64,000 nucleotides of DNA. Source: Aquabacterium commune. GTDB lineage: Bacteria; Pseudomonadota; Gammaproteobacteria; Burkholderiales; Burkholderiaceae_C. Below the pieces are notes generated by a model. It was not told the DNA's origin, did no database searches, and saw nothing but the letters and a program-made list of their open reading frames with translations. The position numbers were made by a program, and so were the translations under genes. Positions 11,480-58,681 of this stretch are shown here, piece by piece. The stretch's first letter is position 1; every line of letters starts with the position of its first letter. The stretch is from NCBI RefSeq assembly GCF_004362855.1, contig NZ_SNXW01000003.1, positions 62,001 to 126,000 on the forward strand, read 5' to 3'.

Positions 11480-11570
11480 GCCCGCACAAGCTGTGTCAGA
11501 AGGTAAAGCCAGCCGTGTCCCGGGCGGATTTCACGAGTGAGCTTTCAGGCACGGCGCTACACTTCAGCCG

Positions 11571-12029
11571 ATGAGCGAGTTTCATACCACCGCCATGCCC
11601 TCGGCGTTCGTGCCCATGATCGGCAAGGCCTCCAGCAGCACCGGCGCCGGCCTGGCAGCGGGTGGTGTTGCGCCCACCACGGGTGCGATGGCCCGCCCCA
11701 GCGTCATCCAGCTGGTGTTCCGCGAAAAGGGCGCGCTTTACGCCGCCTACATGCCGGCCTTCACCGACGGCGGTTTGTTCGTGCCCACCACGCGCGACTA
11801 CACCCTGGGCGACGACATCTACCTGCTGCTGTCCCTGCCCGAAGATCCCCAGCGCTACCCCGTGGCCGGCAAGATCGCCTGGATCACCCCTGCCAACGCC
11901 TCCGGCGGCCGCACCCAGGGCGTCGGCGTGCGCTTCCCGGCAGACGACAAAACCCGCCTGCTGCGCGTCAAGATCGAACAGATCCTGGGCACCAACATCT
12001 CGTCGAGCAAGCCGACCCAGACCATCTGA
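11571..12029 (+). CDS. pilZ: PilZ, type IV pilus biogenesis protein
   Basis: PilZ-domain protein of 152 residues. The PilZ core starts near residue 42 (VIQLVFREKGALYAAY), continues through TDGGLFVPT, and ends with QGVGVRFPADD. The c-di-GMP-binding RxxxR motif is absent, as in the canonical PilZ of Pseudomonas aeruginosa, which does not bind c-di-GMP and acts with pilus assembly factors such as PilB and FimX. The N-terminal 40 residues are Ala/Thr/Ser/Gly rich and likely disordered. Its position downstream of tmk-holB and upstream of tatD is the conserved pilZ context. The 91 bases before it hold no clear terminator. Confidence 0.85.
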   Translation: MSEFHTTAMPSAFVPMIGKASSSTGAGLAAGGVAPTTGAMARPSVIQLVFREKGALYAAYMPAFTDGGLFVPTTRDYTLGDDIYLLLSLPEDPQRYPVAGKIAWITPANASGGRTQGVGVRFPADDKTRLLRVKIEQILGTNISSSKPTQTI

Positions 12030-12077
12030 GGCATGATCGCAGGTTGCGCATCTGGCGCATCACACCTGCTTTGCATC

Positions 12078-12863
12078 ATGTTCGTTGACTCGCACTGCCA
12101 CCTCAACTTCCCCGATTACGCCCAGACCCTGGACCAAGTCCGTGCCGACATGGCCGAGGCCCGCGTTGATCGGGCGCTGTGCATCAGCACCACCCTGGAA
12201 GAGTTTCCGCAAGTGCAGGCCCTGGCCGCGCGCTTCGACAATTTCTGGGCCACGGTGGGCGTCCATCCCGACAACGAGGGCGTGCAAGAGCCCACGCTCC
12301 AAGACCTGGTCGAGCGCAGCCGCCTGCCGCGCGTGGTCGGCATCGGCGAGACAGGGCTCGACTACTACCGCCTGGGCGAGCGCACCGTGGCCGACATGGC
12401 CTGGCAGCGCGAGCGCTTCCGCGTGCACATCCGCGCCGCGCGCCAGACCGGCCTGCCATTGGTGATCCACACCCGCGAAGCCAGCGCCGACACCCTGGCC
12501 ATCCTGCGCGAAGAGGGCGAGGGCCAGGTGCGTGGTGTCTTCCACTGCTTCACCGAAAGCGAGGCCGTGGCCCGTGCCGCCCTGGACCTGGGCTTCTACA
12601 TTTCGTTCTCCGGCATCCTGACCTTCAAGAACGCCGTCGAGCTGCGCGAGGTGGCCAGCTTCGTGCCGCTCAAGCGCTGCCTGATCGAGACCGACAGCCC
12701 CTACCTGGCGCCCACACCGCACCGCGGCAAGACCAACTCCCCGGCCTATGTGGCCTTGGTGGCCCGCCAGCTCGCCGCCATCAAAGGCTGTGACGAAGCC
12801 GAAGTGGGGCGCGTCACCAGCGAGAATTTCGAGGATTTGTTCTCGTTGGTGCGCCGCAGCTGA
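12078..12863 (+). CDS. tatD: TatD family hydrolase (deoxyribonuclease)
   Basis: Metal-dependent hydrolase of 261 residues in the TatD/YcfH/YjjV group, which act as 3'-5' exonucleases or D-aminoacyl-DNA processing enzymes. Metal ligands are visible in order: FVDSHCHLNF at residues 2-11, GIGETGLDYY near 93-102, VIHTREAS near 128-135, VFHCFTES near 153-160 and ETDSPYLAP near 207-215. It starts 48 bases after pilZ. The ATG at 12078 is used because the TIM-barrel family begins at this motif; the open frame extends 15 codons upstream without family similarity. Confidence 0.88.
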   Translation: MFVDSHCHLNFPDYAQTLDQVRADMAEARVDRALCISTTLEEFPQVQALAARFDNFWATVGVHPDNEGVQEPTLQDLVERSRLPRVVGIGETGLDYYRLGERTVADMAWQRERFRVHIRAARQTGLPLVIHTREASADTLAILREEGEGQVRGVFHCFTESEAVARAALDLGFYISFSGILTFKNAVELREVASFVPLKRCLIETDSPYLAPTPHRGKTNSPAYVALVARQLAAIKGCDEAEVGRVTSENFEDLFSLVRRS

Positions 12864-12890
12864 GGGTTTGGCCACGCTGTTTGCCTGACG

Positions 12891-12915
12891 GCCTGTCAGA
12901 CAATTTCTGACAGGC
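12891..12915. repeat. Perfect 10-bp inverted repeat after tatD
   Basis: GCCTGTCAGA and TCTGACAGGC separated by five bases (CAATT), 28 bases after the tatD stop and about 90 bases before the small gene at 13005. It has no T run, so it may be a terminator hairpin or an operator for the small gene. Confidence 0.55.
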
Positions 12916-13004
12916 GGTATGGTTGTTGGGTGACTACCACCAACCGCCTCTGATCCCTACAGTGAGTCCCATCGCAACGGACATATTTCACGCAGAGGCA
13001 CCCC

Positions 13005-13220
13005 ATGCAAAAGCAAAGCTTGTACGCCAACCCCTTCGCCCTGATGATGGACCCCCAGGCTGTGTTGGAGGCCATGGAGCGTTCGGAGCGCCTGAACCGC
13101 CTGCAAAGCCGCGTGTGCCGTCCGCTGGACAAGCCGCTGATCCCGATGGTGGGCTCGGACGATCAGGAGATCGACGCCAGCGACATCGAGTTGCCGGAAG
13201 AAAGCGTCTCGGCCCAGTGA
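13005..13220 (+). CDS. Small conserved-looking hypothetical protein (71 aa)
   Basis: Protein of 71 residues with no recognised domain. It begins MQKQSLYANPFALMMDPQ and continues with a charged helix (EAMERSERLNRLQSR) and RPLDKPLIPM, then an acidic tail rich in Asp, Glu and Ser. No signal peptide or membrane segment is seen. The reading frame looks real: codon use matches its neighbours, AGAGG lies about seven bases before the ATG, and it is a stand-alone gene between two hairpins. I have the impression of similar short proteins in other Burkholderiales but cannot verify it. Function unknown. Confidence 0.6.
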   Translation: MQKQSLYANPFALMMDPQAVLEAMERSERLNRLQSRVCRPLDKPLIPMVGSDDQEIDASDIELPEESVSAQ

Positions 13221-13230
13221 GCCAGACAGC

Positions 13231-13248
13231 GCGTCGGACGCCCGACGC
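13231..13248. terminator. Hairpin between convergent genes
   Basis: Arms GCGTCGG and CCGACGC with a four-base loop. It lies in the 37-base gap between the small + strand gene and the end of the ABC permease on the - strand, so it could terminate both. There is no T run. Confidence 0.45.
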
Positions 13249-13257
13249 AGGCGCGGC

Positions 13258-14127
13258 TCACAGCGCCTGAGGCCAGCGTGCCTCCAGATGTCGCCCCAGG
13301 CGCGCCAGCGCCAGGCACATGAGGGCATAGACCAGCCCCACGAACAGGTAGGCCTCGAAGTAGAAGGCCCGCCAGACCGGGTCCCCGCTCAGGCTGAGCG
13401 AGAGGCCGCCGGTCAGCTCGTGCAGGCCGATCACCATCACCAGCGAGCTGTCCTTGAGCAGCCCGATGGCATGGCTGGTCAGCGCCGGCAACACGGCCCT
13501 CAGGGCCTGTGGCAGCACGATGCGACCTTGTGTCGCCCACCACCCCAAGCCCAGCGTGTGAGCGGCTTCGCTCTGCTCTTTCGGCACCGTCTGCAGGCCG
13601 CCTCTGACGATTTCCGCAAGATAGACCGCCGAAAACACGCTGAGCACGGCCGTGGCCCGCCACAACAGCGCGGGGGCTTCGCCCTGTGGCCACAGCAGCG
13701 GCAGCAAGAACGCCGCCATGAAGAGCAGGGTGACCACTGGCACGCCGCGCACGCCTTCGATGAAGGCCACGGCCGGCCAGTGCAGCCAGCGCATGCGCGA
13801 ACGACGCGCCAGCGCCAGGCCGATGGCCAGCGGCCAGGACAGCAGCCAGCTCAGGCCGAACAGCATCAGCGTCAAGGGCAGGCCGGCGGGCTGCCAGGGC
13901 TGACCGGGTGCCGACTCGATGACCCGCCCGAGCAGCCACTGCGGCCCTTTTTCGGCCACCACGCCCCAGCATGCGCCCTGGTGCTGCAAGGCCTGGCAGG
14001 CGACGGCATCGGCGCGGAACTCGGCCCGCCAGACGGCCCAGCCCAACGCTTGCCACAGCAGCCATGCGACCACGCACAGCCCCAAGCCGCTGGAGACGGC
14101 TTTCACCACACGTGCGGCGGACGTCAA
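13258..14127 (-). CDS. Polar amino acid ABC transporter permease (AapM-like)
   Basis: Inner-membrane permease of 289 residues of the HisM/AapM family with several membrane helices. The family's EAA-type loop is visible as QSEAAHTLGLGWWATQGRIV followed by LPQALRAVLP at about residues 183-212, where the missing ATPase would dock. A TTG start at 14127 is chosen: it overlaps the TGA of the preceding permease, and GGAGG lies six bases upstream. Downstream GTG codons are alternatives. It is the last gene of the binding protein-permease-permease set. The partner ATPase (AapP type), often next in such operons, is absent here. Confidence 0.8.
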   Translation of the reverse strand: MTSAARVVKAVSSGLGLCVVAWLLWQALGWAVWRAEFRADAVACQALQHQGACWGVVAEKGPQWLLGRVIESAPGQPWQPAGLPLTLMLFGLSWLLSWPLAIGLALARRSRMRWLHWPAVAFIEGVRGVPVVTLLFMAAFLLPLLWPQGEAPALLWRATAVLSVFSAVYLAEIVRGGLQTVPKEQSEAAHTLGLGWWATQGRIVLPQALRAVLPALTSHAIGLLKDSSLVMVIGLHELTGGLSLSLSGDPVWRAFYFEAYLFVGLVYALMCLALARLGRHLEARWPQAL

Positions 14128-15010: not shown

Positions 15011-16081
15011 TCAGCGCACCGGCGGCGCGAAGACCAGGCCGCCCTGGTTCCAGGGTCGGTTGACGCCGCGTGGCAGCTTGAGCGGCGACTGCGCACCGAC
15101 GTTGCGCTCGAAGATTTCACCGTAATGGCCCACCGCCTTGATCGCGCGCAGCGACCAGGCCTTGTCCAGACCCAGCAGCTTGCCCATGTCTTCGCCCGTG
15201 CCCAGCAGGCGCTGGATGGCCGGGTCGTCGGAGGGCTTGGCTGCGGCGGCCTGGGCCTGGGTGATGCCCAGCTCTTCGGCTTCCTGCAGCGCGAACACCG
15301 TCCATTTGACGATGGCGAACCACTCGTCGTCGCCACGGCGCACCACGGGGCCCAGCGGCTCTTTGGAGATGAGGTCGGGCAGCACGGCATAGTCGGCGGG
15401 GTTGGGGGACTCCTTGCTGCGGATGCTGGCCAGCGCCGACGCGTCGGCCGAGTAGGCCTGGCAACGGCCGGCGAACAAAGCCTTGAAGCCGGCCTCGTAG
15501 GTGTCGAACACGATGGGCTTGATGGCCAGCTTGTGGGCGCGGGAGAAGTCCGCGAGGTTCTTCTCGGTGGTGGTGCCCGACTGCACGCACACCTGGGCGC
15601 CCTTGAGCTGGTTCGCGCGCGTGACCTTGAGCTTGGTGGGCACGAGGAAGCCCTGGCCGTCGATGTAGGTGATGGCGGTGAAGTGGAAGCCCAGCGAGGC
15701 GTCGCGCGTCAGCGTCCAGGAGGTGTTGCGCGAGAGCACGTCGATCTGGCCCGACTGCAGCGCCGCGAAGCGCTGTTGCGCATTCAGCGGCACGAAGTGG
15801 ACCTTGTCGCCATCGCCCAGCACGGCGGCGGCCACGGCGCGGCAGATGTCCACGTCCAGGCCCGTCCAGCGGCCTTTGGCATCGGGTGCAGAAAAGCCTG
15901 CCACGCCGGTGCTGACGCCGCAGTTGATTTGGCCGCGCTGGCGGATGCCATCGAGCGTCTTGCCGGCATGGGCCTGATCGGCTGCGCTCAACGCCAGTGC
16001 AGCAAGGATCCACACAGGCAGGATCGCGCGCCAGGCATGCAGGGGGCGGAGCAGACGCAACAGGTGGGGCAGGATGGGCAT
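15011..16081 (-). CDS. Amino acid ABC transporter periplasmic binding protein (AapJ-like)
   Basis: Solute-binding protein of 356 residues, family 3. A signal peptide covers about residues 1-39, with a hydrophobic stretch (WILAALALSAA) and a likely cleavage after AHA. The mature part starts with KTLDGIRQRGQINCGVSTG, typical of AapJ and related general L-amino-acid binders. Inner motifs include WTGLDVDICRAVAAAVLG and the DVLSRNTSWT segment that marks this subfamily. The ATG at 16081 is chosen over the frame's earlier alternative start because it gives a standard signal peptide. The gap to the upstream PrmC-like gene is 81 bases without a convincing terminator, so read-through from that cluster is possible. 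Confidence 0.85.
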   Translation of the reverse strand: MPILPHLLRLLRPLHAWRAILPVWILAALALSAADQAHAGKTLDGIRQRGQINCGVSTGVAGFSAPDAKGRWTGLDVDICRAVAAAVLGDGDKVHFVPLNAQQRFAALQSGQIDVLSRNTSWTLTRDASLGFHFTAITYIDGQGFLVPTKLKVTRANQLKGAQVCVQSGTTTEKNLADFSRAHKLAIKPIVFDTYEAGFKALFAGRCQAYSADASALASIRSKESPNPADYAVLPDLISKEPLGPVVRRGDDEWFAIVKWTVFALQEAEELGITQAQAAAAKPSDDPAIQRLLGTGEDMGKLLGLDKAWSLRAIKAVGHYGEIFERNVGAQSPLKLPRGVNRPWNQGGLVFAPPVR

Positions 16082-16162
16082 GGCGCAGGTCACGGGGTTG
16101 GCGGCAGGGGCTGTGGGGCCCCAGCGGGCCACGCGCCGCCATTGTGGGTCAAAGCGCGTGGT

Positions 16163-17098
16163 TCACAGGCGCTGTGCCAGCAAAGACCGCACCTGGCCGT
16201 GGTCGTCGAGCACCGTTTGTGGCGCGCCGAACTGGCCCGTGCGCGCCAGCCACTGTTGCACCGCCGGGCCCTGGCCCAGGCCGACTTCCAGCCCCAGCCA
16301 GCCGCCCGAGCGCAGGAAACGGGGCGCGTCCTTCATCAGCCTTTGCAGGATGCGGATGCCGAAAGGGCCGCCGTCAAACGCCAGGCTGGGCTCGTGCTGG
16401 ACGATCTCGGCGGGCATGCTGTCGAGCTTGCCGCTGGAGATGTAGGGCGGGTTGCACAACAGCAGGTCGGTGTGACCGAGGAAGTCGGCAGCATCGCCAT
16501 GGACGGCGTTGGCCTCGCCGGCGTCAAAAGGCGCGAGCAGGTCGCCGCAGCGCCATTGCACGCGCTCGCTCAGGCCCAGGTGGCGGGCGTTGGCCTCGGC
16601 CAGGGCCACGGCCTCGGGCGAGAGGTCCGCACCCCAGACGCGCGCCGTGGGCACGCCCTGGGCCATGGCCAGGGCCAGGTTGCCCGAGCCCGTGCACACG
16701 TCGATGACGCGGGGTGAGGCCATCTCGCGCAGGTGCGCCAGGGCGGCGCGGGCCAGCAGCTCGGTCTCGCGGCGGGGGATCAGGGCTTGCGGTCCGGCGA
16801 GCATTTCCAGCCCCATGAAGGCCTGCCGGCCGCTCAGGTGCGCCAGGGGGATGCCCGCCAGGCGCTGGGCGATGAGCGCACCGAGTTGGGCGTCCTGCGC
16901 GGCGTCCAGCGTGGGCAGGGCCTCATTGGCCAGGTGGCCGGCCGCGTCTGCTGACATCGGCTTTCCAGCGGCCAGGCACCACAGCGCGCGCAAGGTGGCT
17001 TCCGGCGTCTCTTCGGGCTTGTCGGGCAGGGTCTGCATGGCCGATCGCAACACGGCCAGGCGTTCGGCGAAGCCTTCTGTGCGCATGCCTGCGCTCAT
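16163..17098 (-). CDS. PrmC/HemK-like N-methyltransferase
   Basis: SAM-dependent methyltransferase of 311 residues. The PrmC layout is present: an N-terminal helical domain, [14 protein letters not shown] (PrmC usually has PRPETE) near residue 110, the SAM loop [16 protein letters not shown] near 130-145, and the catalytic NPPY motif ([12 protein letters not shown]) near 215-226. [10 protein letters not shown] follows, as in release-factor methylases. NPPY enzymes methylate planar amide or base nitrogens. True prmC normally sits next to prfA. Here the ATG overlaps the stop of the NAD-synthase-like gene within an amidotransferase cluster. So this is either a displaced prmC or, I think at least as likely, a pathway N-methyltransferase. 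Confidence 0.72.
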
Positions 17099-18117
17099 GC
17101 CCGCACCTCCAGCACCTCATCGACCAGCGCGGGGCGGGCGTGCAGGTAGGCGGTGGCGCGACGCTTGGCCTCGATGTCCAGGTACACCGCCTGGGCGTGG
17201 GCCTCGGTGATGCCCAGGGCCTGGGCCAGTTCGTGCGCCGGACGCCCCTGGTTGTGGGCCCACAGCGCCAGGTCCATCTGCTGGTGGGGCAGGCTGAAGT
17301 AGAACTCGTCCTGGCCTTGCGGCAGGCTGTAGGTGTCGGTCGTGGGCGGCGCGCTGCACACCGATTCGGGCAAGCCCAGATGCCGCGCCAGCAGATAGAC
17401 CTGCGTCTTGTAGAGGTGGGCGATGGGCTTGATGTCGGCCGCACCGTCGCCGTTCTTCACGAAGAAGCCCTGGTCGTACTCCAGGCGGTTGGGCGTGCCG
17501 ATCACGGCGCGGTTGAGTCGGTCGGCGTGGAAGTACTCGACCGTCTTGCGGATGCGCTGCTTGTGGTTGGTGGCGGCCACGATCTGCAGGTAGGCCTTCA
17601 GCGGCAGGCGCGCCTCGTGCATCTGCCCGTCAGGCGACTGCACGATGAGCTTGAAGTAGCTGATGCGGCCTTGTGCTGGCGCTGCGCCCGGCTCACCGGC
17701 CTGCGCGATGGCGATCTTGCTTTTCCAGTCCGGGCCGTAGGCAGGGAAGACACTGCGCATGGCCTCGTCGCGCCAGCGGTAGCAACCAATGGCCTCGACC
17801 GTCGCACCGATGGGCTCCAGCATCGCCTCGACACCGAGTTGCTCGGCCACTTCGCGGCCCTTGTCTTCGCTGGACAGGCTGGAATCTTTCTCGGGCATGA
17901 GCAGGCCCAGCACCTTGTCGGCACCCAGCGCACGCACGGCCAGCGCGGCGCACACGGAGCTGTCCACACCGCCCGACATGCCCAGCACCACGCCACGCTT
18001 GTTGAAGCGACGCAGCGAGGCGACCATGTGCTGGCCGATGCGTTGCACCTCGGCTTCGCCGTCGAGCGCGAAAACGTCGGGCGTGATGGGGGGCGTGAGG
18101 GAGGGCGCGGTGCTCAT
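17095..18117 (-). CDS. NAD synthase-like ATP pyrophosphatase (ammonia-dependent amidase type)
   Basis: NadE-family protein of 340 residues. The N-type P-loop VVLGMSGGVDSSVCAAL is at about residues 43-59. Family motifs GTPNRLEYDQGFF and KNGDGAADIKPIAHLYKTQV are near 210-245, followed by an altered C-terminal motif around QGQDEFYFSLP. There is no nitrilase-type glutaminase domain, so nitrogen would come from free ammonia or a partner. An insert of about 60 residues after GCYRWRDEAM is unlike E. coli NadE. It begins one base after the carrier-protein gene and overlaps the methyltransferase gene. The context suggests it adenylates and amidates a pathway substrate rather than making NAD, but housekeeping NadE activity cannot be excluded. 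Confidence 0.75.
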   Translation of the reverse strand: MSTAPSLTPPITPDVFALDGEAEVQRIGQHMVASLRRFNKRGVVLGMSGGVDSSVCAALAVRALGADKVLGLLMPEKDSSLSSEDKGREVAEQLGVEAMLEPIGATVEAIGCYRWRDEAMRSVFPAYGPDWKSKIAIAQAGEPGAAPAQGRISYFKLIVQSPDGQMHEARLPLKAYLQIVAATNHKQRIRKTVEYFHADRLNRAVIGTPNRLEYDQGFFVKNGDGAADIKPIAHLYKTQVYLLARHLGLPESVCSAPPTTDTYSLPQGQDEFYFSLPHQQMDLALWAHNQGRPAHELAQALGITEAHAQAVYLDIEAKRRATAYLHARPALVDEVLEVRA

Positions 18118-18118
18118 G

Positions 18119-18373
18119 TCAGGCTGCCTTCTTGCGCTGGACGTAAGCCTCGATGGCGCTCAGGCAGTCGAGGTTGTCGGGCACCATCTCGTCCTCCGTG
18201 ACCTCGATGCCATAGGTTTCCTCCAGGAACATGATCAGCTCCAGGAAGCCGGTGGAGTCAACGATGTGGTGCTCCAGGAAGGAGTCGCCATCGGCGAAAC
18301 CGGCTTGCTCGCCGCCCATGAGGAAGCTGTCGGTGATGAAGGCGCGGACGGTGTCTTTGATGGCTGCGGTCAT
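18119..18373 (-). CDS. Acyl carrier protein (dedicated carrier)
   Basis: Carrier protein of 84 residues. The phosphopantetheine attachment Ser is residue 40 in HHIVDSTGFLELIMFLEE, a variant of the usual DSL motif (DST) seen in stand-alone carriers of polysaccharide and small-molecule clusters rather than in the fatty-acid AcpP. The rest is an acidic four-helix pattern ending QRKKAA. It lies 47 bases after the acyl-AMP ligase, which probably loads it, and one base before the NAD-synthase-like gene. The start ATG at 18373 is preceded by a short A/G-rich stretch in the mRNA sense. Confidence 0.85.
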   Translation of the reverse strand: MTAAIKDTVRAFITDSFLMGGEQAGFADGDSFLEHHIVDSTGFLELIMFLEETYGIEVTEDEMVPDNLDCLSAIEAYVQRKKAA

Positions 18374-18420
18374 GGTGGATCCGTGAGGTTTCTTGTGGGG
18401 TCTGTGAAGGGCTTGCGTGT

Positions 18421-19995
18421 TCAGGCCAGACCGGTTTTCTTGATCTTGCCCGTGTCGGTTTTGGGCAGGGCGTCAACGAACTCGACGTGCTTGGGCGCCA
18501 TGAAGCTCTCCAGGCGTGCCAGGCATTGTCGGATGACCTCGCGCTCGGTCAGCGTCACCCCGGGCTGGCAGACGACGAAGGCTTTGACGGCCTGGCCCAG
18601 CAAATCATCGGGCACGCCGATGACAGCGGCTTCGAACACGCCCTCGATGGCGTACAGCGCGTTCTCGACTTCCTTGGGGCTGACCTTTTCGCCACGGCTT
18701 TTGATGATGTCGTCCTTGCGGGCCACGAAGTAGAGGTAGCCCTCGCTGTCGGTGCGGAAGAGGTCGCCGGTGTGAAGCACGGGCGCACCTGCCTGGCCAC
18801 CGATAGCCGGTCCTGGCCGCAAACGCTGGGCCGTGGCCTCGGGCTTGTCCCAGTAGCCCAGCATGACGTTGCTGCCGCGCACGACCAGCTCGCCCGTGCT
18901 GCCATTCGGCAGGCGTTGCCCCGCCTCATCGACCAGCCAGACTTCCTCGTTGGGCATGCCTCGGCCGACGCTGGTGGGGCGCACGTCGAGCTGCTCGGGC
19001 GGCAGGTAGGTCACGCGCTTGCACTCGGTCAGGCCGTACATGGAAAACAGCGTGGCCTGCGGGAAGAGCGCACGCAGGCGCTGGATGTGGGCCTCCGACA
19101 AGGCCGCGGCGGTGTTGGTGATCATGCGCAGGTGGCCCAGGGCGAAGCTGGGCAAGGTCTGCAGGTTCATCAGCATGGCGAACATGGTCGGTACACCGGG
19201 GAAGACGGTGACCCGCTCGCGCACCATCACCTCCAGCACCTTGACGGGGAAGGTGAAGCTGCGCTCCAGCACCAGGGTGGCGCCGACGCGTGCGCACATC
19301 AGCAGCTGGTAGAGGCCGTAGTCGAAAGCCAGGGGCAGGGCGCACAGCACGGTGTCGTCGGCACGCAGGCCCAGGTAGGTGCTCACCGAGGTGCAGGCCG
19401 AGACCATGTTCAGGTGGCTGAGCATCACGCCCTTCGGGTCACCGGTGGAGCCCGAGGTGTAGATGATGGCGGCGAGGTCCTGGTCGATCAGGCCCCCGTC
19501 GATCACACCGACGTGGGCCATGCGGGTGCTGGCGTCGGGCATGAATGCGGGCAGGGCGCGTTCACGGCCGGTGCTGCTGCCATCGTCATGGCCACCGGCA
19601 CCCTGCAGCCCGCACACCCAGGCCACATCGACCGAGGTGTTCTGCGCCAGCGCCGCATGCCACACGCCACGCAGGTTGTCTTGCGTGATCAGCACGCGGG
19701 CGCGCGCGTCGTTGAGCATGTAAGCCAGCTTGTCGGCCTTGGTCAGCGGGTTGATCGGCATGAAGGCCCCACCGGCCTGCAGCACGGCCCACACGGCCAC
19801 CGCCATCTCGACGCGGTTGTCCAGGAACAGGGCGACCCGGTCACCGCGCTGCAGCCCGATGCCTTGCAGGGCCGATGCCAGTTGCTGCGACCGCTGCAGC
19901 AGCTCACCGAAGCTGTGGCGCTGCCCGTCGCTGACCAGGGCGATGTGGTCGGGGCTCTGGGTGGCGCTGTGGACGAAGAAATCGTGGAGGAGCAT
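18421..19995 (-). CDS. AMP-dependent acyl/aminoacyl-ACP ligase
   Basis: ANL-superfamily adenylating enzyme of 524 residues. Core motifs in order: IIYTSGSTGDPKGVMLSH near residues 172-189, SMYGLTECKRV near 322, LHTGDLF near 407, the hinge FVARKDDIIKSRGEKVSPKE near 421-440 and the catalytic Lys of KTDTGKIKKTGL at the C-terminus. It resembles the exosortase-associated acyl-CoA ligases (AMP-forming) found beside a carrier protein and an asparagine-synthase-like amidotransferase, though no exosortase gene is in the window. The gene starts 12 bases after the amidotransferase and is followed by the carrier protein, so its natural acceptor is probably that carrier. The acid substrate is unknown. Confidence 0.82.
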   Translation of the reverse strand: MLLHDFFVHSATQSPDHIALVSDGQRHSFGELLQRSQQLASALQGIGLQRGDRVALFLDNRVEMAVAVWAVLQAGGAFMPINPLTKADKLAYMLNDARARVLITQDNLRGVWHAALAQNTSVDVAWVCGLQGAGGHDDGSSTGRERALPAFMPDASTRMAHVGVIDGGLIDQDLAAIIYTSGSTGDPKGVMLSHLNMVSACTSVSTYLGLRADDTVLCALPLAFDYGLYQLLMCARVGATLVLERSFTFPVKVLEVMVRERVTVFPGVPTMFAMLMNLQTLPSFALGHLRMITNTAAALSEAHIQRLRALFPQATLFSMYGLTECKRVTYLPPEQLDVRPTSVGRGMPNEEVWLVDEAGQRLPNGSTGELVVRGSNVMLGYWDKPEATAQRLRPGPAIGGQAGAPVLHTGDLFRTDSEGYLYFVARKDDIIKSRGEKVSPKEVENALYAIEGVFEAAVIGVPDDLLGQAVKAFVVCQPGVTLTEREVIRQCLARLESFMAPKHVEFVDALPKTDTGKIKKTGLA

Positions 19996-20007
19996 GGGTG
20001 TGATCGG

Positions 20008-21960
20008 TCAATGTGAACGCACAAAACGCGCGTGCAACAGCATGGTGGACAGCACGCCGACGAGGGCCATGTTGTCGCCGAAACCGATGGCCCGGCCTTG
20101 CGCGCACTTGGCCATCAACTTGCCCACGGCCTGAGGCTCGAACAAACCGGCATCGGCCAGGCGCGTGGGGCTGAGCAGCTCGGCCACCCAATCCAGCGCA
20201 CGCCCCTGATCGAAGAAGCAGGCGCTGTCGGGCGCGCGGTAGGGCTGCTTGGTGCGGGTGCGGATGCCTTCGGGCAGCAGGCCACTCACCGAGCGCTTGA
20301 GCAGGTATTTTTCGGTCAGGCCCATGAGCTTGTAGCGCGGCGGCAGGCGGTTGCCGAACTCGATGACGCGGTGGTCCAGGAAGGGGAAACGCCCCTCGAT
20401 GGACGCGGCCATGGCCATGCGGTCGCCTTGTGAGCTCAGCAGGTAGCCCGACATCAGCGTGTGCGCCTCGATGTACTGGTCGCGCTGCAGCGGTTGCCAG
20501 CCCGCGTGCGAGGCCGGCAGGTGGGCTTCGAGCGCGGCCAGGTGGTTCCAGCCCGCCAGCTGCGCGCGCACATCGGGCGAGAAAAACTGCCAGATGCGCT
20601 GGGTGGTCTGCCAGCGCGGGTGGTGGCCAAAGTGGGGCTGGTGGGCGTGCTCGGCGCCTTCGGCGAAAAAGCGCTGGGCCAGCACCCGGGCGGCCGCGGG
20701 CGAGTGGCGCAGGTAGGGGTAGAGCCGGTCGATGAGCTGCGGCCGCGCCTTCGACTGCGGCTGGCGCGCCATGAAGCGGCGGATGCGCGCTTCTTTGAAG
20801 ATGTCGTAGCCGCCGAAGACCTCGTCTGCGCCTTCGCCCGTCAGCACGACCTTGAAGCCGGATGCGCGCACATGGCGGGCCAGCAGCATCATCGGCGTGG
20901 GAGCCGTGCGCAGCACCGGGGCCTCGGTGTGCCAGACGGTGTCGGCAAAGGCCTCGGCGATGTCGGCGCGGCTGCAGCGCAGGCTGCTGTGCGCGGTGCC
21001 CAGGTGCGCAACCAGCTCGGCCTGTTGCGCGCTTTCGTCGAACTCGGCGTCGTCGAAGGTCAGCGAGAAAGTGCGCAGCGGCGTGTCGGTGAAGTGCTTG
21101 ATGAGCGTGGTGACGATGGACGAGTCCAGGCCACCGCTCAGGTAAGCGCCCACGGGCACGTCGGCGCGCAATTGCAGGCGCACGGCATCGACCAGCAACT
21201 CGCGCAGCTCTTCGGCCAAATCTGCACCATCGCGGTGGGCATGGTGGCTGGCAGCGCCATCGCCAAAATCCCAATCCCAGTAGCGCTGCGTGCGTGCGCT
21301 GGCGCGCAGGTCGGGCGCTTGCGCGTCCACCACCATCAGGGTGCCAGGGGGCAGGGCGTCGATGCCCTGGAACACGGTGCGGCCGGGCAGGGGGGCCCAG
21401 TAGGTGAAGGTTTCGCCGATAGCGCCCACATCCAGCGCACGCGGCACCTCGGGCAGAGCGAACAGCGCTTTGACCTCGGAAGCGAAGGCCAGACCTTCTG
21501 GTGTCCAGGTGAAGAACAGGGGGCGGATGCCGGTGCGGTCGCGCGCCAGCACCAGCCTGCGCTGGCGGTCGTCCCACAGGGCGATGGCGAACTGGCCGTT
21601 GAGGCGGTCCACGAAGGCCTCGCCGACCTGCTCGTACAGGTGGACGATCACTTCGGTGTCGGAGTGCGTGCGGAAGGTGTGGCCCTGGGCGATCAGCTCG
21701 GCACGCAACTCGATGTGGTTGAAAATTTCTCCATTGAAAACGACCTGGATGGCGCCGTCTTCGTTGCCCATCGGCTGGTGGCCACCGGCCAGGTCGATGA
21801 TGCTCAGGCGGCTGTGGGCCAGGCCGATGCGGCCGTCGGGTCCACCGGCCCAGACGCCTTGACCATCGGGGCCGCGGTGGGCCAGGCGTTGGATCATGGC
21901 GGTCAGCAAGCCAGGTTCAACCCGCCTTGCCCGATTCAACAACCCTGCAATGCCGCACAT
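20008..21960 (-). CDS. Asparagine synthase-like glutamine amidotransferase
   Basis: Class II amidotransferase of 650 residues. The ATG at 21960 gives MCGIAGLL, exposing the nucleophilic Cys2 after Met removal; the longer open frame would bury it. The glutaminase domain shows RGPDGQG, SRLSIIDL, VFNGEIFNH and THSDTEV. The synthetase domain has the PP-loop VGAYLSGGLDSSIV at about residues 266-279 and GEGADEVFGGYDIF near 378-391. Both halves therefore look active. The length and C-terminus resemble the AsnB-like amidotransferases of exopolysaccharide and exosortase loci rather than housekeeping AsnB. It is the first gene of the run with the ligase, carrier protein and NAD-synthase-like gene. Confidence 0.85.
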   Translation of the reverse strand: MCGIAGLLNRARRVEPGLLTAMIQRLAHRGPDGQGVWAGGPDGRIGLAHSRLSIIDLAGGHQPMGNEDGAIQVVFNGEIFNHIELRAELIAQGHTFRTHSDTEVIVHLYEQVGEAFVDRLNGQFAIALWDDRQRRLVLARDRTGIRPLFFTWTPEGLAFASEVKALFALPEVPRALDVGAIGETFTYWAPLPGRTVFQGIDALPPGTLMVVDAQAPDLRASARTQRYWDWDFGDGAASHHAHRDGADLAEELRELLVDAVRLQLRADVPVGAYLSGGLDSSIVTTLIKHFTDTPLRTFSLTFDDAEFDESAQQAELVAHLGTAHSSLRCSRADIAEAFADTVWHTEAPVLRTAPTPMMLLARHVRASGFKVVLTGEGADEVFGGYDIFKEARIRRFMARQPQSKARPQLIDRLYPYLRHSPAAARVLAQRFFAEGAEHAHQPHFGHHPRWQTTQRIWQFFSPDVRAQLAGWNHLAALEAHLPASHAGWQPLQRDQYIEAHTLMSGYLLSSQGDRMAMAASIEGRFPFLDHRVIEFGNRLPPRYKLMGLTEKYLLKRSVSGLLPEGIRTRTKQPYRAPDSACFFDQGRALDWVAELLSPTRLADAGLFEPQAVGKLMAKCAQGRAIGFGDNMALVGVLSTMLLHARFVRSH

Positions 21961-22036
21961 GCCATCCCGTCCCGTGTGATGTCGCCTGCCCGACCGCTTG
22001 GGGCTTCGCACATGCGCAGAGTGTAAAAGCCCCGCC

Positions 22037-22141
22037 ATGACAGCCGAGCGGCAACATCTCCAGAATGTCCCCCATCATACTGAGGTCATTGAGCTGATCG
22101 CGGACAATGTTGCTCTGCAGCAAAACATGCGGCTCTTTTGA
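22037..22141 (+). CDS. Possible 34-codon upstream reading frame
   Basis: Short frame starting MTAERQHLQNVPHHTEV and ending MRLF, stopping at TGA 12 bases before the gene at 22154 and in the same frame as it. Its composition looks protein-like (an amphipathic IELIADNVALQQ segment) and is richer in AT than its surroundings. There is no good ribosome site. It may be a leader peptide, a fragment of a once longer gene, or chance. Confidence 0.25.
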   Translation: MTAERQHLQNVPHHTEVIELIADNVALQQNMRLF

Positions 22142-22153
22142 CGCAACCGACCG

Positions 22154-22609
22154 ATGCCCATCACCTCCACGCGACGCATCAACGTCGTACAGCAATTCGT
22201 TCGCCTGGGGTTCGCCGACCACCTCGACCCCGATGCGCCCTTTTACTCGGGTGATTTCCTCACCCAGGAGCTCACGACGACCGAAGTCCAGGCCGCCATG
22301 AGCGTGCTGCCGCGCATCAACACCTTCGTGGGTGTTCAGGTGGCCGGCAGCCTGGACCGTTTTCGCGGCGAGGTGAGGGCGTGGAAATTCGGCCGCTCGG
22401 GCACGCCCGTGTTGCACGTGTTGCTGCCGTTCTGGACGCACCAAGTGGAAGAGCGCCACGTGGCCAGCCCGGTGGGCGCGCCTGTCCAAGACGCCGAGCA
22501 CCGCGCCCTCATCGAACGCCTGCAGCACTGCCTGGTGGACGAGCTGGATGCCTTTGATTTCACCCGGGTGGACGAAACAGACCACGTCTGGCGCGCCCGC
22601 TGGCGCTGA
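22154..22609 (+). CDS. Hypothetical protein (151 aa)
   Basis: Protein of 151 residues with no domain I can name. It starts MPITSTRRINVVQQFVRLGF, has a basic N-terminus, a central FVGVQVAGSLDRFRGEVRAW segment, and a C-terminal helix with Cys in RLQHCLVDELDAFDF. There is no signal peptide and no membrane helix. Codon use matches neighbouring genes, and the frame lies in a divergent position to the amidotransferase cluster, 193 bases away, followed by convergent YeeE/YedE genes. It could belong functionally to the amidotransferase cluster, but only proximity suggests this. Confidence 0.5.
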   Translation: MPITSTRRINVVQQFVRLGFADHLDPDAPFYSGDFLTQELTTTEVQAAMSVLPRINTFVGVQVAGSLDRFRGEVRAWKFGRSGTPVLHVLLPFWTHQVEERHVASPVGAPVQDAEHRALIERLQHCLVDELDAFDFTRVDETDHVWRARWR

Positions 22610-22639
22610 GCCTGCGTCGCTTGCCAGTGCCGGTGGATG

Positions 22640-23098
22640 TCAGTGCCGGTTCGTCTGGCGCTGCAGCCAGGCGCCTGCCAGCATCGCAGGCACGAACACC
22701 CAGACTTCGGCATTGCCTGCCAGCAGCGATGTCAGCGCAGGTCCGGGGCAATAGCCTGACAGCCCCCAGCCGATGCCGAACAGCGCGGCGCCCAGCAGCA
22801 GGCGCGCATCGATCGCCTTGTTCTGAGGCACGTGGAAAACCGTGCCGCACACCGGCGCCTGGCGGCGCTTGAGCAGCCACTGGAAGCCCAGCAGGCTGAC
22901 CGCGACCGCCCCGCCCATCACGAAAGCCAGGCTGGGGTCCCAGTGGCCCGCCACGTCCAGGAAGGCTTGCACGGTCAGCGGGTTGCTCATGCCCGACAGC
23001 GTCAGCCCCCAGCCAAAGAAGAGCCCGCATCCCAGGGCGATGACGAACCCGTGCCAGGGCGAGCCGGTGCTAGCAGCATTCACATTGCTTTTTGTCAT
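22640..23098 (-). CDS. YeeE/YedE family sulfur transporter, second half (DUF6691)
   Basis: Membrane protein of 152 residues with about four helices. The conserved motif GLTLSGMSNPLTVQAFLD lies near residues 32-49 and GIGWGLSGYCPGPALTS near 111-127, the latter with the single conserved Cys of the family. Members of the YeeE/YedE group carry thiosulfate or other reduced sulfur compounds; many are split into two adjacent halves, as here. The start ATG at 23098 is 14 bases after the stop of the partner gene, so they form one operon. Confidence 0.82.
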   Translation of the reverse strand: MTKSNVNAASTGSPWHGFVIALGCGLFFGWGLTLSGMSNPLTVQAFLDVAGHWDPSLAFVMGGAVAVSLLGFQWLLKRRQAPVCGTVFHVPQNKAIDARLLLGAALFGIGWGLSGYCPGPALTSLLAGNAEVWVFVPAMLAGAWLQRQTNRH

Positions 23099-23768: not shown

Positions 23769-25094
23769 ATGGATCGGTGCGACATTGAGCGCTGCGTTAA
23801 AGGTGACCCGTTAAGGCCAGGCGTGAGAAAGTTCGAAGCATCCTCCTCATCGCCCATGGTGCCGCCGCCTGCGCCATGGGGGCGGCCGGTGGTGGCCGTG
23901 CGTGAATTGCGCCCGCTGATGGTTGACCCGGTCGAGTCACAGGTGCTCGAAGATGTGTTGCGCACGGGCCTGCGGGGGCTGCGCTTCCCGCCCGAACTGG
24001 AGACCCGCTTCCAGGAGGAAACCGGCCCGCAGCGCCTGCGCACCTTGCTCGTCAGCAGCGCGCTGGTCAGTGTGCTGTTCAACTGGCTGTTGCTGTCCGA
24101 CTGGATGATGATCCCGGACGTGTTTGACACGGCCCTTCAATGGCGACTGTTCATTTACACGCCGGCCACCTTGGCGGGGCTTTTCGTCCTCATGCACATG
24201 CCCAGCCCGCGGCTGCGCGAAGCCATGATCGTGGTGGCAGGCTGTTGTGCCGCGGCGCTCAACACCTGGTTGTGCATGCGCAGCCAGGACGCTTTGGCGG
24301 GGCCTTACCTGGTCAGCGTCACGGTCGTCGTTGTGTACTGCAACACGGTGGCGCGCCTGCGGTTTCGCCCTGCGCTGGTGCTCGACAGCCTGGTCGTGGC
24401 GATGTACTTCTACGGATGGTGGCATCTGCCCAACGCGCCCGTCACCATCATGGCGCCGGGAGCGCTGACCCTGATCTCGGCCGTGGTGTTCACTTTGTAT
24501 GGCGCCTATTCCCAAGAGCACGATGTCCGCGAAAACTGGCTGCGCCTGATGCGCGACCGCGTGTTGCAAGACGAGCTGCGCCAGGCCAACGCCCGACTGG
24601 AGGCCGCATCGCGCAGTGACATGCTGACCGAACTGGCCAGCCGGCGGCATTTCGACGCGTCTTTGCTGTCGATGTGGGCCCAGGCCCGCGAAGATGGCCA
24701 TGAGATATCGCTCATGCTCATCGACATCGACGACTTCAAGGCCTACAACGGGCGGCAAGGCCATCTGCGGGGCGACGCCTGCCTCAAGGCGGTGGCCGGC
24801 ATCCTCAAGCACCGCTTGCGTCGCCCGGAGGACATGGTCGCCCGCTTCGGCGGCGAGGAGTTCATCGTGGCCATGAGCGACACCTCGCTGCAAACGGCGG
24901 TGGGTGCGGCCGAGCGCGTGCGCAAGGGCGTGGAGACGCTGGGCGATGTCACCGTGAGCGTGGGCGTGTCCTGCATGCGGCCCAACTCACCGCACGCGAA
25001 CATGGCGCAACTGCTGGCCGCGGCCGACGAGGCCTTGCATCTGGCCAAAAAGCGTGGCCGCAACCGCGTCATCGCATTCGGGACCCAGGATTGA
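23769..25094 (+). CDS. Membrane-bound diguanylate cyclase (GGDEF), first of a tandem pair
   Basis: Protein of up to 441 residues that would make c-di-GMP from two GTP. About six membrane helices lie between residues 95 and 250 (for example LVSSALVSVLFNWLLL), followed by a short coiled coil (LQDELRQANARLEA) and a GGDEF domain from about 277. The catalytic motif ARFGGEEFIV is near 360. RPED sits five residues upstream, an intact RxxD inhibitory site, so product feedback is likely. The start is uncertain: ATG at 23769 has no ribosome site, and ATG at 23856 would give an N-terminus closer in length to the paralogue that follows. The membrane domain is not one I can name. Confidence 0.82.
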   Translation: MDRCDIERCVKGDPLRPGVRKFEASSSSPMVPPPAPWGRPVVAVRELRPLMVDPVESQVLEDVLRTGLRGLRFPPELETRFQEETGPQRLRTLLVSSALVSVLFNWLLLSDWMMIPDVFDTALQWRLFIYTPATLAGLFVLMHMPSPRLREAMIVVAGCCAAALNTWLCMRSQDALAGPYLVSVTVVVVYCNTVARLRFRPALVLDSLVVAMYFYGWWHLPNAPVTIMAPGALTLISAVVFTLYGAYSQEHDVRENWLRLMRDRVLQDELRQANARLEAASRSDMLTELASRRHFDASLLSMWAQAREDGHEISLMLIDIDDFKAYNGRQGHLRGDACLKAVAGILKHRLRRPEDMVARFGGEEFIVAMSDTSLQTAVGAAERVRKGVETLGDVTVSVGVSCMRPNSPHANMAQLLAAADEALHLAKKRGRNRVIAFGTQD

Positions 25095-25096
25095 CC

Positions 25097-26371
25097 ATGA
25101 GCACCGCGGCGCAGCCTCCTCTGCAGTCCTTGCCGGAAAGCGACTTCGGCGCTTTCCGCCATCGCACGTCCATGGACCGCATCCACGAATTGCTGGAGCA
25201 CGGTTTTCCGTGGATGTCCTTTCCCTCTGACATGGAGCAGCAGTTCCAGCGGGATGGTGCAGCGGCCCGTGCGCGGCACTTCCTGATCAGTGGCCTGATT
25301 TCGCTGTTCATCTACAACGGTTTTCTGCTGGCCGACTACCTGATGGCCCGCGATGTTTTCTGGCTGGCTGTGGAGCTGCGGCTGCTGGTGTTCACGCCCG
25401 TTTCACTGTTGGCGCTTTACAGCTTCCACAGAGGCGCCCTGCCCTGGTTGCGCCAGGCACCGCCCAGCATCGTGGATGTGCTGGCTTTGCTGGGCGGCAT
25501 CGGTGCAGCCTTCAGTCTGGCCATCATCCTGATGCTGTCACGCAGCCCGTTGATCTATTTCTACCCGGTGGGCTTCATGGTGGTCATCACCTACGGCAAC
25601 GTGGTGCAGCGGCTGCGGTTCTGGTTCGCGGTGGTGTTCACGGTGGTGTTGCTGGGCACTTTCGTGGTGGGCGTGATGGCCACGCCTGAATACCCTGCCC
25701 GCCTGCTGTGGCCCATCAGCTCGATGGTGCTGTCCGTGGCCATGTTCACCCTCAGTGCGAACTACTTCCTGGAGCGCGATGAGCGCCGACGCTACCTCCT
25801 GACGCAGCGCGAACGCGGCTTGGTCAGCGAGCTCAGCCTGGCCCACACGCGCTTGCGCGAGGTGTCTGACATCGATGCGCTGACGGGCATGCACAACCGC
25901 AGCCACATCCAGGAGCACCTGTCCCTGCTGTGGGAGCGTGCGCGGCGCGATGGCGATCACCTCAGCCTGCTGCTGGTGGACATCGACCACTTCAAGAAAT
26001 TCAACGAGCGCTATGGCAACCCGGCCGGCGATGTCTGTTTGCAAAAAGTGGCGCGCGTGCTGCAGGACAGCCAACGCCGCACCGGTGACACCGTGGCGCG
26101 TTACGGCGGCGAGGAGTTCATGGTGGTGCTGCCACGCACCGATGCCTCATTCGCCGTGGGGGCTGCCGAGCGCATCCGCCAGGCGGTGGAGGCCCTGCAG
26201 ATCCGCCACGAAAGCTCGACCACAGCCCTGCACCTGACGGCCAGCGTGGGCGTGGTGTCCTGCCAGGCGGGACCGCAGCTGACGGTGGAGCAGGTCATGG
26301 CGGTGGCAGAGCAGGCGCTGCAGCAGGCCAAGCTCGAAGGCCGCAACCGGGTGTGTGGTCTCAGCCTCTGA
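25097..26371 (+). CDS. Membrane-bound diguanylate cyclase (GGDEF), second of a tandem pair
   Basis: Protein of 424 residues and a clear paralogue of the gene before it. Both have an N-terminal segment of the form PWMSFPSDMEQQF / LRFPPELETRF, about six membrane helices, a short linker and a GGDEF domain. The catalytic motif ARYGGEEFMVV is near residue 340, with RTGD five residues upstream as an intact inhibitory site. The ATG at 25097 is two bases after the TGA of the first gene, so they are translated together. The last 11 bases overlap the 3' end of the convergent CDF gene. The repeated architecture points to a local duplication. Confidence 0.87.
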   Translation: MSTAAQPPLQSLPESDFGAFRHRTSMDRIHELLEHGFPWMSFPSDMEQQFQRDGAAARARHFLISGLISLFIYNGFLLADYLMARDVFWLAVELRLLVFTPVSLLALYSFHRGALPWLRQAPPSIVDVLALLGGIGAAFSLAIILMLSRSPLIYFYPVGFMVVITYGNVVQRLRFWFAVVFTVVLLGTFVVGVMATPEYPARLLWPISSMVLSVAMFTLSANYFLERDERRRYLLTQRERGLVSELSLAHTRLREVSDIDALTGMHNRSHIQEHLSLLWERARRDGDHLSLLLVDIDHFKKFNERYGNPAGDVCLQKVARVLQDSQRRTGDTVARYGGEEFMVVLPRTDASFAVGAAERIRQAVEALQIRHESSTTALHLTASVGVVSCQAGPQLTVEQVMAVAEQALQQAKLEGRNRVCGLSL

Positions 26372-56920: not shown

Positions 56921-56932
56921 GAGGGGCTGGCG

Positions 56933-58549: not shown

Positions 58550-58563
58550 CGCAAACCGGGCGG

Positions 58564-58586
58564 AAATGCACGGAGTCCGTGCATTT
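58564..58586. terminator. Long perfect inverted repeat after the CoA-transferase
   Basis: AAATGCACGGA and TCCGTGCATTT, 11-bp arms around one base, 14 bases after the stop codon. As RNA it would form a strong hairpin ending in TTT. A dimeric-protein site is an alternative. Confidence 0.55.
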
Positions 58587-58681
58587 GCATCGCTCTGCCC
58601 GAGTCTGACCCTTTGGCCGATTGATTCCCGGGCGTGCGGGCCCTAGCCTTGCCGCCGGATCCATTGTTTCGGAGTGTGAAG

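What the first reader, a model, noticed from the sequence alone, without database searches (positions are those of the whole stretch)
16163..21960. Carrier-protein-linked cluster with two different ATP-pyrophosphatase amidotransferases
Five co-directional genes with gaps of 12, 47 and 1 bases and one overlap encode an AsnB-like amidotransferase (intact Cys2 glutaminase and SGGLDSS loop), an acyl-AMP ligase, a stand-alone carrier with a DST phosphopantetheine site, a NadE-like ATP pyrophosphatase without a glutaminase domain, and a PrmC-like methyltransferase. Both pyrophosphatases activate carbonyl groups by adenylation. Seen together with a carrier and its ligase, they suggest a small pathway in which an acid is loaded on the carrier and converted to an amide or amidine. 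Parts resemble exosortase-associated polysaccharide loci, but no glycosyltransferase, exosortase or export gene is nearby. The product is not predictable from sequence alone.
Basis: partly seen in the sequence, partly recalled or inferred. Interest (0 to 1): 0.75.

Follow-up and report, generated by a model that had tools for sequence, protein, structure and literature searches.

The report
Carrier-bound amide pathway, split in two
Five neighbouring bacterial genes form half of a conserved but uncharacterised pathway that probably builds an amide-bearing building block on a small carrier protein for attachment to a surface sugar or lipid; the other half sits elsewhere in the genome, and relatives show that the first half can be swapped.

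Summary
In detail: AsnB, acyl-AMP ligase, DST carrier, NadE-like and PrmC-like genes lie at 21960-16163 on the minus strand with the stated gaps. It is not a chance neighbourhood. The genome has another full-length NadE and a better PrmC. Of 80 fetched relatives of the NadE-like gene, 73 have the ligase in the locus, 74 the carrier, 61 AsnB, 28 the methyltransferase.

The window holds half a pathway. The closest relatives continue with a KASIII, a second carrier and a double-GNAT protein; here these three lie on another contig. This KASIII subtype occurs in 6 of 299 family genomes, all six among the 18 with the NadE-like gene.

One same-genus genome lacks window segment 15968-22678; another carries a different carrier-AsnB-ligase-NadE block beside KASIII where ours has a 0.1-kb gap: modules were exchanged.

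Methyltransferase presence tracks the ligase pocket: Asp at '235' in 38 of 38 with it, 2 of 52 without.

Most likely a carrier-bound acyl or aminoacyl unit is amidated, N-methylated and transferred to an amine of a surface glycan or lipid. The product is unknown.

The parts
20008..21960 (-). AsnB-like glutamine-hydrolysing amidotransferase, 650 aa; intact glutaminase Cys2 and ATP-PPase SGGLDSS loop
   Evidence: TIGR01536 504 bits, above cut-off 267; 113 columns conserved at 97% or more among 66 rows, window included
18421..19995 (-). class I adenylate-forming ligase, 524 aa; pocket code DYYPTTMRVK in GrsA-type numbering (numbering recalled)
   Evidence: AMP-binding PF00501; TIGR03098 478 bits, below cut-off 592; pocket positions
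18119..18373 (-). stand-alone carrier protein 1, 84 aa, serine in VDSTG
   Evidence: PP-binding 16.7 bits, below cut-off 20.8; S31 D39 S40 T41 G42 conserved at 97% or more among 82 rows, window included
17095..18117 (-). NadE-like ATP pyrophosphatase, 340 aa, subfamily NF002048 (PRK00876), with an insert of about 60-70 residues
   Evidence: NF002048 471 bits, cut-off 313; motif comparison; model pLDDT 89; the 50 PDB chains listed by Foldseek are all NAD or NMN synthetases, rank 1 under a structural-genomics title that names an NAD synthetase
16163..17098 (-). PrmC/HemK-like SAM methyltransferase with NPPY, 311 aa
   Evidence: TIGR00536 160.7 bits, over cut-off 115.5; TIGR03534 198.1 bits, just below cut-off 199.1; a better PrmC exists on C2, 279.6 bits
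15968..22678 (.). segment with no counterpart in same-genus genome G833: its flanks align to L206 at 11428 and 11261, about 166 bases apart there
   Evidence: blastn; end points are alignment ends, not exact junctions

Best explanation
The window encodes the upstream, exchangeable half of a carrier-protein pathway. Inferred order: the ligase adenylates a small acid and loads it on carrier 1; AsnB (ammonia from glutamine) and the NadE-like enzyme (free ammonia) adenylate carboxyl groups of that building block, or of its acceptor, and turn them into carboxamides; the PrmC-like enzyme methylates a planar amide nitrogen. In window-type systems the Asp at pocket position 235 suggests an amino acid, for instance an acidic amino acid or its amide. 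KASIII, carrier 2 and the double-GNAT protein, encoded on contig C1, then extend or pass on the acyl unit and transfer it to an amine, most likely an amino sugar of a surface polysaccharide. Shown here: gene content, conservation, residues, co-occurrence, module exchange, tie between methyltransferase and ligase pocket. Inferred: the reactions, their order, the acceptor and the product.
For: Conserved module in 80 fetched loci. NadE-like keeps NadE catalytic columns (SGGxDS, N184, R188, R190, GT.N..E, K221, GDG.D, DE) and adds an insert with invariant C112, Y113, R116, D117, Y127, W131, K134. KASIII, carrier 2 and GNAT adjoin the module in L006, L075, L038, L045, L058, L040, L055 and L185; L056, L069, L186 and L187 have KASIII and carrier 2 without a GNAT hit. 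KASIII has Cys120, His257, Asn287 invariant in 10 of 10 rows. KASIII subtype in 6 of 299 family genomes, all within the 18 of 299 with NF002048. The GNAT model (7 sequences, pLDDT 85) resembles N-myristoyltransferases, TM about 0.5, rmsd about 7, and is homologous to family c6 beside the module in other loci, hhalign probability 99.6. XrtA/EPS-type clusters in 29 of 80 loci, acyltransferase-like genes in 31 of 80. L056 has FabG-like, FabA-like and Antibiotic_NAT genes. Ligases of loci with the methyltransferase all have D235 and T301. In S. meliloti, ligase SMb20650 acylated carrier SMb20651 in E. coli (passage in PMC7232532, citing work I have not seen); the match of those tags to this operon is my inference.
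Against: No substrate, product or phenotype is known. KASIII lies near the module in only 9 of 80 loci; 12 of the 18 family genomes with NF002048 lack this subtype, as do 20 of 23 other NF002048 genomes searched, so it is not a universal partner. 36 of 80 loci show none of the acyltransferase, EPS or KASIII clusters within their flanks. Of the seven XrtA/EPS clusters, the representative exceeded the curated cut-off in three. AsnB is missing near the module in at least nine loci with the other genes (L008-L011, L013-L016, L018). L024 and L067 have a D235 ligase without the methyltransferase, also genome-wide; L024 also has a second, S-type ligase nearer to NadE. The tree-based sign test for the tie does not reach 0.05 (median p 0.125). 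The genome's exosortases are XrtB type or near it, not XrtA. Some loci have an ABC transporter beside AsnB: importer type in L019 and L037, ABC-2 type in L072.
Confidence: 0.5

Rival explanations
1. The NadE-like or AsnB enzyme amidates a nucleotide-activated uronic acid (a uronamide sugar), and the carrier and ligase serve a separate acyl decoration; the genes travel together because both modify the same polysaccharide.
For: Related loci lie in or near polysaccharide gene clusters (29 of 80). Deamido-NAD is itself a nucleotide with a carboxylate, and NadE catalytic residues are retained. AsnB-like proteins for uronamides are recalled from O-antigen loci, not looked up.
Against: The core genes also form operons without sugar genes close by (window; S. 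meliloti; Thiomonas-like loci), and in the window carrier, NadE-like and methyltransferase genes abut or overlap. No nucleotide-sugar gene was recognised among the 27 neighbour clusters scanned by one representative each; rarer neighbours were mostly not scanned.
Confidence: 0.2
2. The module makes a small diffusible metabolite (antibiotic, siderophore or signal) rather than a surface decoration.
For: Carrier, ligase, KASIII and amidotransferase resemble parts of polyketide or amino-acid natural product pathways; carrier hits include AmcB (cispentacin) below cut-off. The window operon is followed by an amino-acid ABC importer. ABC transporters stand beside AsnB in some loci: NMT1/THI5-type importer genes in L019 and L037, ABC-2 type in L072; the ABC ATPase cluster is in 6 of 80 loci.
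Against: The window's importer protein is also present in same-genus G833 and G913, which lack the operon beside it, so it is a pre-existing neighbour; the ABC transporters of other loci are of different types. EPS context recurs.
Confidence: 0.17
3. The NadE-like enzyme activates an amide instead of an acid and makes an amidine, which the PrmC-like enzyme methylates.
For: N-type PPases are known for acetamidino sugars, and NPPY methyltransferases act on planar nitrogens (both recalled). The methyltransferase keeps PPY and other motifs.
Against: Many residues of the NadE active site are kept, though several neighbours differ; no HisH/HisF-type partner was recognised in the neighbour clusters scanned.
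Confidence: 0.08
4. Chance neighbourhood: a spare NAD synthetase and PrmC beside unrelated genes.
For: The window alone shows no pathway context.
Against: Conservation across 80 loci, a separate NadE group, second nadE and prmC in the genome.
Confidence: 0.02

Closest known systems
Sinorhizobium meliloti SMb20650/SMb20651 ligase-carrier pair (pSymB)
   Same: Operon AsnB-carrier-ligase-NadE in S. meliloti RCAM1750 and, by tblastn, on Rm1021 pSymB; carrier with DST motif, one such place on that pSymB record at E 1e-3; ligase acylates the carrier in E. coli (passage); carrier with DST motif and 'unknown function' (passage).
   Different: S. meliloti proteins are 46-56% identical to the window's; order carrier-ligase instead of ligase-carrier; the methyltransferase lies about 12 kb away (in S. 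medicae about 10 kb, with a GNAT). The record I read had no gene table, so the tag match is inferred.
XrtA/PEP-CTERM exopolysaccharide loci (TIGR03098 ligase, TIGR03108 amidotransferase)
   Same: Same gene kinds; 29 of 80 relatives of the module lie among genes of XrtA/EPS-type clusters.
   Different: Window ligase and AsnB are below both cut-offs; no XrtA over cut-off in the genome, but XrtB types.
NH3-dependent NAD+ synthetase NadE
   Same: Fold (target-normalised TM 0.73-0.88, query-normalised 0.59-0.64, for the top 8 chains) and catalytic residues.
   Different: Insert with invariant residues, several neighbouring residues changed, separate group in trees, second NadE in genome.
PrmC release-factor glutamine methyltransferase
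   Same: Domain and NPPY motif.
   Different: Below the TIGR03534 cut-off by 1 bit; N-terminal domain below Pfam cut-off (21.4 against 23.4); another PrmC scores 279.6.
Malonamyl starter formation by an AsnB-like enzyme in tetracycline biosynthesis (OxyD; recalled, not looked up)
   Same: AsnB-like amidation of a small acyl starter before condensation.
   Different: No NadE-like enzyme, stand-alone ligase or N-acyltransferase is recalled there.

Membership tests
Housekeeping NAD+ synthetase (NadE) | catalytic PPase motifs and NadE signature residues | tested here: met
   (against 12 canonical rows; 9 of 21 candidate loci, the genome's own C1 NadE among them, were dropped by the script's motif filter)
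Housekeeping NAD+ synthetase (NadE) | only or best nadE of the genome | tested here: not met
   C1:89047-89814 scores 244.9 bits over full length; window pieces 93.6 and 63.1
Housekeeping NAD+ synthetase (NadE) | groups with canonical NadE in a tree | tested here: not met
   12 canonical rows on one side of a branch with support 100; with own C1 NadE added to a 33-row tree, 13 on one side, support 100, but its end branch is 7.1 long
Housekeeping NAD+ synthetase (NadE) | makes NAD+ from deamido-NAD | not testable with these tools
   needs enzyme assay
NF002048 (PRK00876) subfamily | score over curated cut-off | tested here: met
   471.1 against 313
TIGR03098 exosortase A-associated ligase | score over cut-off | tested here: not met
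   477.9 against 592.35
TIGR03108 XrtA amidotransferase | score over cut-off | tested here: not met
   442.8 against 816.9
XrtA/PEP-CTERM polysaccharide locus | XrtA exosortase in the genome | tested here: not met
   best 164.3 against 208; the three proteins fit XrtB best, two over its cut-off
PrmC | score over TIGR03534 cut-off | tested here: not met
   198.1 against 199.1; marginal
PrmC | methylates Gln of the GGQ motif | not testable with these tools
   another PrmC over cut-off exists
KASIII (FabH) for the C1 partner | Cys-His-Asn triad | tested here: met
   Cys120, His257, Asn287 invariant in 10 of 10 rows
KASIII (FabH) for the C1 partner | score over FabH cut-offs | tested here: not met
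   230 against 249 (NF006829), 201.5 against 292.1 (TIGR00747)
OlsHI or AmcB carrier families | score over cut-off | tested here: not met
   46.2 against 130; 42.7 against 80
SMb20650/SMb20651-type operon | AsnB, DST carrier, ligase and NadE-like gene adjacent | tested here: met
   tag identity inferred

The most novel reading that the evidence does not exclude
A widespread 'cartridge' system: interchangeable AsnB-ligase-carrier-NadE(-methyltransferase) modules, each making a different amidated and sometimes N-methylated building block, plug into a shared KASIII-carrier-double-GNAT (or other N-acyltransferase) machine that decorates surface glycans. Acquiring or losing the methyltransferase goes with a re-cut ligase pocket, so decoration chemistry is switched by exchanging a module. 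The NadE-like enzyme would be an amide synthetase for small carrier-linked molecules, a role not known to me for this fold.
Probability: 0.3. Interest if true: 0.78.

Novelty: new variant of a known kind. Interest (0 to 1): 0.62.

Why it matters
In every rhizobial and Azospirillum record read here that had a gene table, the gene is annotated 'NAD(+) synthase', yet it very likely does something else. If the reading holds, a NAD synthetase fold has been recruited to make amides in a carrier-protein pathway, a ligase-carrier pair of unknown function in S. meliloti gains its partners, and the chemistry of an unseen class of surface decorations becomes testable by deleting single genes in a laboratory symbiont. 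The exchange of half the pathway within one genus, with the other half kept, is a natural experiment that shows which parts must match.

Tried and rejected
Tried and dropped: spare housekeeping NadE; spare PrmC; strict XrtA locus; the amino-acid ABC importer as part of the pathway, since its protein is present in G833 and G913 without the operon beside it. A prediction of mine failed: I expected L024 and L067, which have D235 ligases without a nearby methyltransferase, to carry it elsewhere; the genome search found nothing above 101.1 bits in them. In the same of 16 genomes had nothing above 124 bits; the other three are those of L075, L020 and L047. The AU test did not reject a genus clade for the NadE-like protein (p 0.159), although it did for ligase and AsnB. 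A closest-structure job with VIA-align could not run.

Rows dropped: 9 of 21 canonical NadE candidate loci (motif filter; own C1 NadE among them, added later on a 33-row tree with 20 chosen family rows); these three and L136, L183, L188; seven loci without a usable ligase; L047 got no methyltransferase label; one ligase per locus was kept, so extra D-type ligases in L050 and L066, and the S-type one in L024, are not in its counts (before that choice, one search counted D in 29 of 29 with and 4 of 43 without the methyltransferase; the 4 are L024, L050, L066, L067). S. meliloti L212 (stretch ends before the methyltransferase position) and L216 (duplicates L209). Of 116 matching plasmid records I fetched eleven, chosen for variety. 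Methyltransferase absence was judged within about 9 kb or 10-14 kb, so distant copies can be missed. Near-copies among the rows inflate the counts.

Paper searches that found nothing on the module; open-licence papers only. One search found the SMb20651 papers. Papers: PMC3684757, PMC7232532, PMC5686131, PMC9386255, PMC12391972, PMC12794305: passages only. The other listed papers: search listing and start of abstract only. Ramos-Vega 2009 (PubMed 19118366): not held; seen only as a citation.


Full report
1. Observation. The five ORFs are present as described, on the minus strand: AsnB-like 20008-21960, ligase 18421-19995, carrier 18119-18373, NadE-like 17095-18117, PrmC-like 16163-17098; gaps 12, 47, 1 and a 4-base overlap. 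Families: TIGR01536 for AsnB, AMP-binding for the ligase (best NCBIfam match TIGR03098, below cut-off), NF002048 for the NadE-like protein (471 against 313), TIGR00536 (HemK family, over cut-off) and TIGR03534 (one bit below cut-off) for the methyltransferase. The carrier reaches no Pfam cut-off (PP-binding 16.7 against 20.8), but its DST serine region is conserved among 82 rows.

2. Not housekeeping. The genome has a full-length NadE in a 588-residue frame on C1 and a PrmC scoring 279.6 bits on C2. The NF002048-type gene is sporadic: over cut-off in 9 of 274 class genomes, 2 of 399 order genomes and 18 of 299 family genomes, the window's own counted in each. In a tree of 88 family rows and 12 canonical NadEs the canonical rows form one side of a branch with support 100. 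The genome's own C1 NadE was not among the 12; added to a smaller tree (20 chosen family rows) it falls on the canonical side, 13 rows, support 100, on a very long branch.

3. Conservation. Genes of seven clusters whose representatives match XrtA/EPS models (three of the seven over the curated cut-off) occur in 29 of 80; an acyltransferase-like gene (c6, c24, FemAB or Acetyltransf_6 clusters) in 31 of 80; 36 of 80 show none of these nor KASIII. Some loci have an ABC transporter upstream of AsnB: NMT1/THI5-type importer genes in L019 and L037, an ABC-2 type in L072. Alphaproteobacterial megaplasmids carry the module too: 116 plasmid records match the NadE-like protein. In Azospirillum ramasamyi carrier, ligase, AsnB, NadE-like and GNAT genes follow O-antigen ligase, glycosyltransferase and deacetylase genes. 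S. medicae has AsnB-carrier-ligase-NadE, then about 10 kb on a methyltransferase-GNAT pair at the edge of a polysaccharide locus with deacetylase, glycosyltransferases, GumC and O-antigen ligase.

4. The missing half. In L006 and L075, whose NadE-like proteins are the closest of the 80 (75-76%), the operon runs on into KASIII, a second carrier and a 380-388-residue protein. The window genome has all three together on C1 (L136: KASIII 12860-13936, carrier 2 12609-12863, GNAT 11358-12599, minus; C1 about 56357-58935), KASIII 72% identical to that of L075. KASIII has an intact Cys-His-Asn set. The third protein of L075 models (pLDDT 85, 7 sequences) as a tandem GNAT; the 50 PDB chains listed first by Foldseek are all N-myristoyltransferases, TM about 0.5, and it is homologous to the c6 family found beside the module in other loci (hhalign probability 99.6). 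The KASIII subtype at E 1e-120 or better occurs in 6 of 299 family genomes, and all 6 are among the 18 with the NadE-like gene (the listed genomes show the same draw). By hand, ignoring kinship, the chance is about 2 in 10^8; by genus it is 4 of 4, with the NadE-like gene in 12 of 141 genera. In 33 chosen genomes it was found over 500 bits in 3 of 23 with the NadE-like gene (those of L041, L006 and L075; the last two supplied rows to the query) and in 0 of 10 family genomes without it; weaker paralogues at 269-275 bits are in G404, without the gene, and G675, with it. In L056 the neighbourhood adds FabG-like, FabA-like and aminoglycoside-acetyltransferase-type genes, plus sugar C-methyltransferase and epimerase.

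5. Module exchange. Same-genus genome G715 has the same split as the window (proteins 88-99% identical). At the window site, G833 aligns on both sides of 15968-22678 with about 166 bases in between, and G833 has neither gene set at the thresholds used. The AU test on quick trees rejects a genus clade for ligase (p 3e-128) and AsnB (p 6e-45); for the NadE-like protein it does not (p 0.159). In the KASIII tree the window-genome row falls with L183, L038, L045, L058, L006 and L075 (99/98). The simplest account is that the old upstream block was lost and a different one gained at another place, with the downstream genes kept. The direction is inferred.

6. Ligase pocket and methyltransferase. Pocket letters were read at ten positions by alignment; Arg at '330' occurs in 72 and Met at '322' in 73 of 75 rows, and the three rows without Arg are unrelated or NRPS-like ligases. 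In the first set, 32 of 32 ligases with a methyltransferase in the locus have Asp at 235 and Thr at 301; of 48 without, 2 have. The pattern was seen before the plasmid loci were fetched. There, 6 of 6 with Asp (S. medicae, S. chiapasense, S. meliloti 1021, M. ciceri, E. adhaerens, Mesorhizobium AR07) have a methyltransferase homologue 42-47% identical within about 12 kb, and 4 of 4 without Asp (two Azospirillum, Shinella, R. rhizoryzae) have none in 10-14 kb. Together 38 of 38 and 2 of 52. Kinship matters: only 5 independent pairs on supported branches exist, on average 3.7 in favour, 0 against, 1.3 without difference, p 0.125. Losses in L006 (N), L025 (S) and L077 (G) fit; L067 does not, and L024 has both ligase types.

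7. NadE-like enzyme. NadE catalytic columns are kept, while an insert at about 111-171 carries family-invariant residues. The model (pLDDT 89) shows three strands there; the Foldseek list is made up of NAD synthetases, an NMN synthetase among them. Amide formation on a carboxylate is therefore the expected chemistry; the substrate is unknown.

8. Known precedent. In S. meliloti the ligase SMb20650 is cotranscribed with carrier SMb20651 and acylates it when co-expressed in E. coli (passage in PMC7232532); the carrier has a DST motif and unknown function (passage in PMC12391972). pSymB of Rm1021 has one match for this carrier type, beside ligase, AsnB and NadE-like genes. The record carried no gene table, so the tag match is inference.

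9. Mechanism and limits. See best explanation. The reactions, order, acceptor and product are inferred; none of the searches listed in Tried and rejected found the module described.

Noticed in passing
G000 contig C1, L127:13904-14842, L128:832-1800, L129:8797-10452: Three exosortases, two over the XrtB cut-off and one just below it (270.6 against 275) with an EpsI-like C-terminal part; EpsF/EpsG-like exopolysaccharide genes lie near the first two.
   Followed up: partly
control genome Methanosarcina acetivorans: The NF002048 NadE-like family is over cut-off in this archaeon, the only one of 14 controls, so the family reaches beyond Proteobacteria.
   Followed up: no
L008-L011, L013-L016: Thiomonas-like genomes carry ligase, carrier, NadE-like and methyltransferase genes next to glnA, ntrB, ntrC and an exonuclease III gene, without AsnB in the locus; whether nitrogen regulation is involved was not examined.
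   Followed up: no
window 22154-22609: A 151-residue plus-strand ORF inside the inserted segment has no family match; it may not be a gene.
   Followed up: no
window 23769-26371: Two tandem ORFs with GGEEF sequences (diguanylate cyclase-like, by eye); not scanned.
   Followed up: no
L024:5340-8620: Two ligases of the two pocket types (DYYPTTMRVK and SYSSTAMRLK) lie side by side in one locus, possibly a cluster caught with both modules.
   Followed up: no
L019:1252-3902 and L037:711-3288: NMT1/THI5-type binding protein and permease genes with an ABC ATPase (scanned in L019) stand directly upstream of AsnB; they could bring in a precursor.
   Followed up: no
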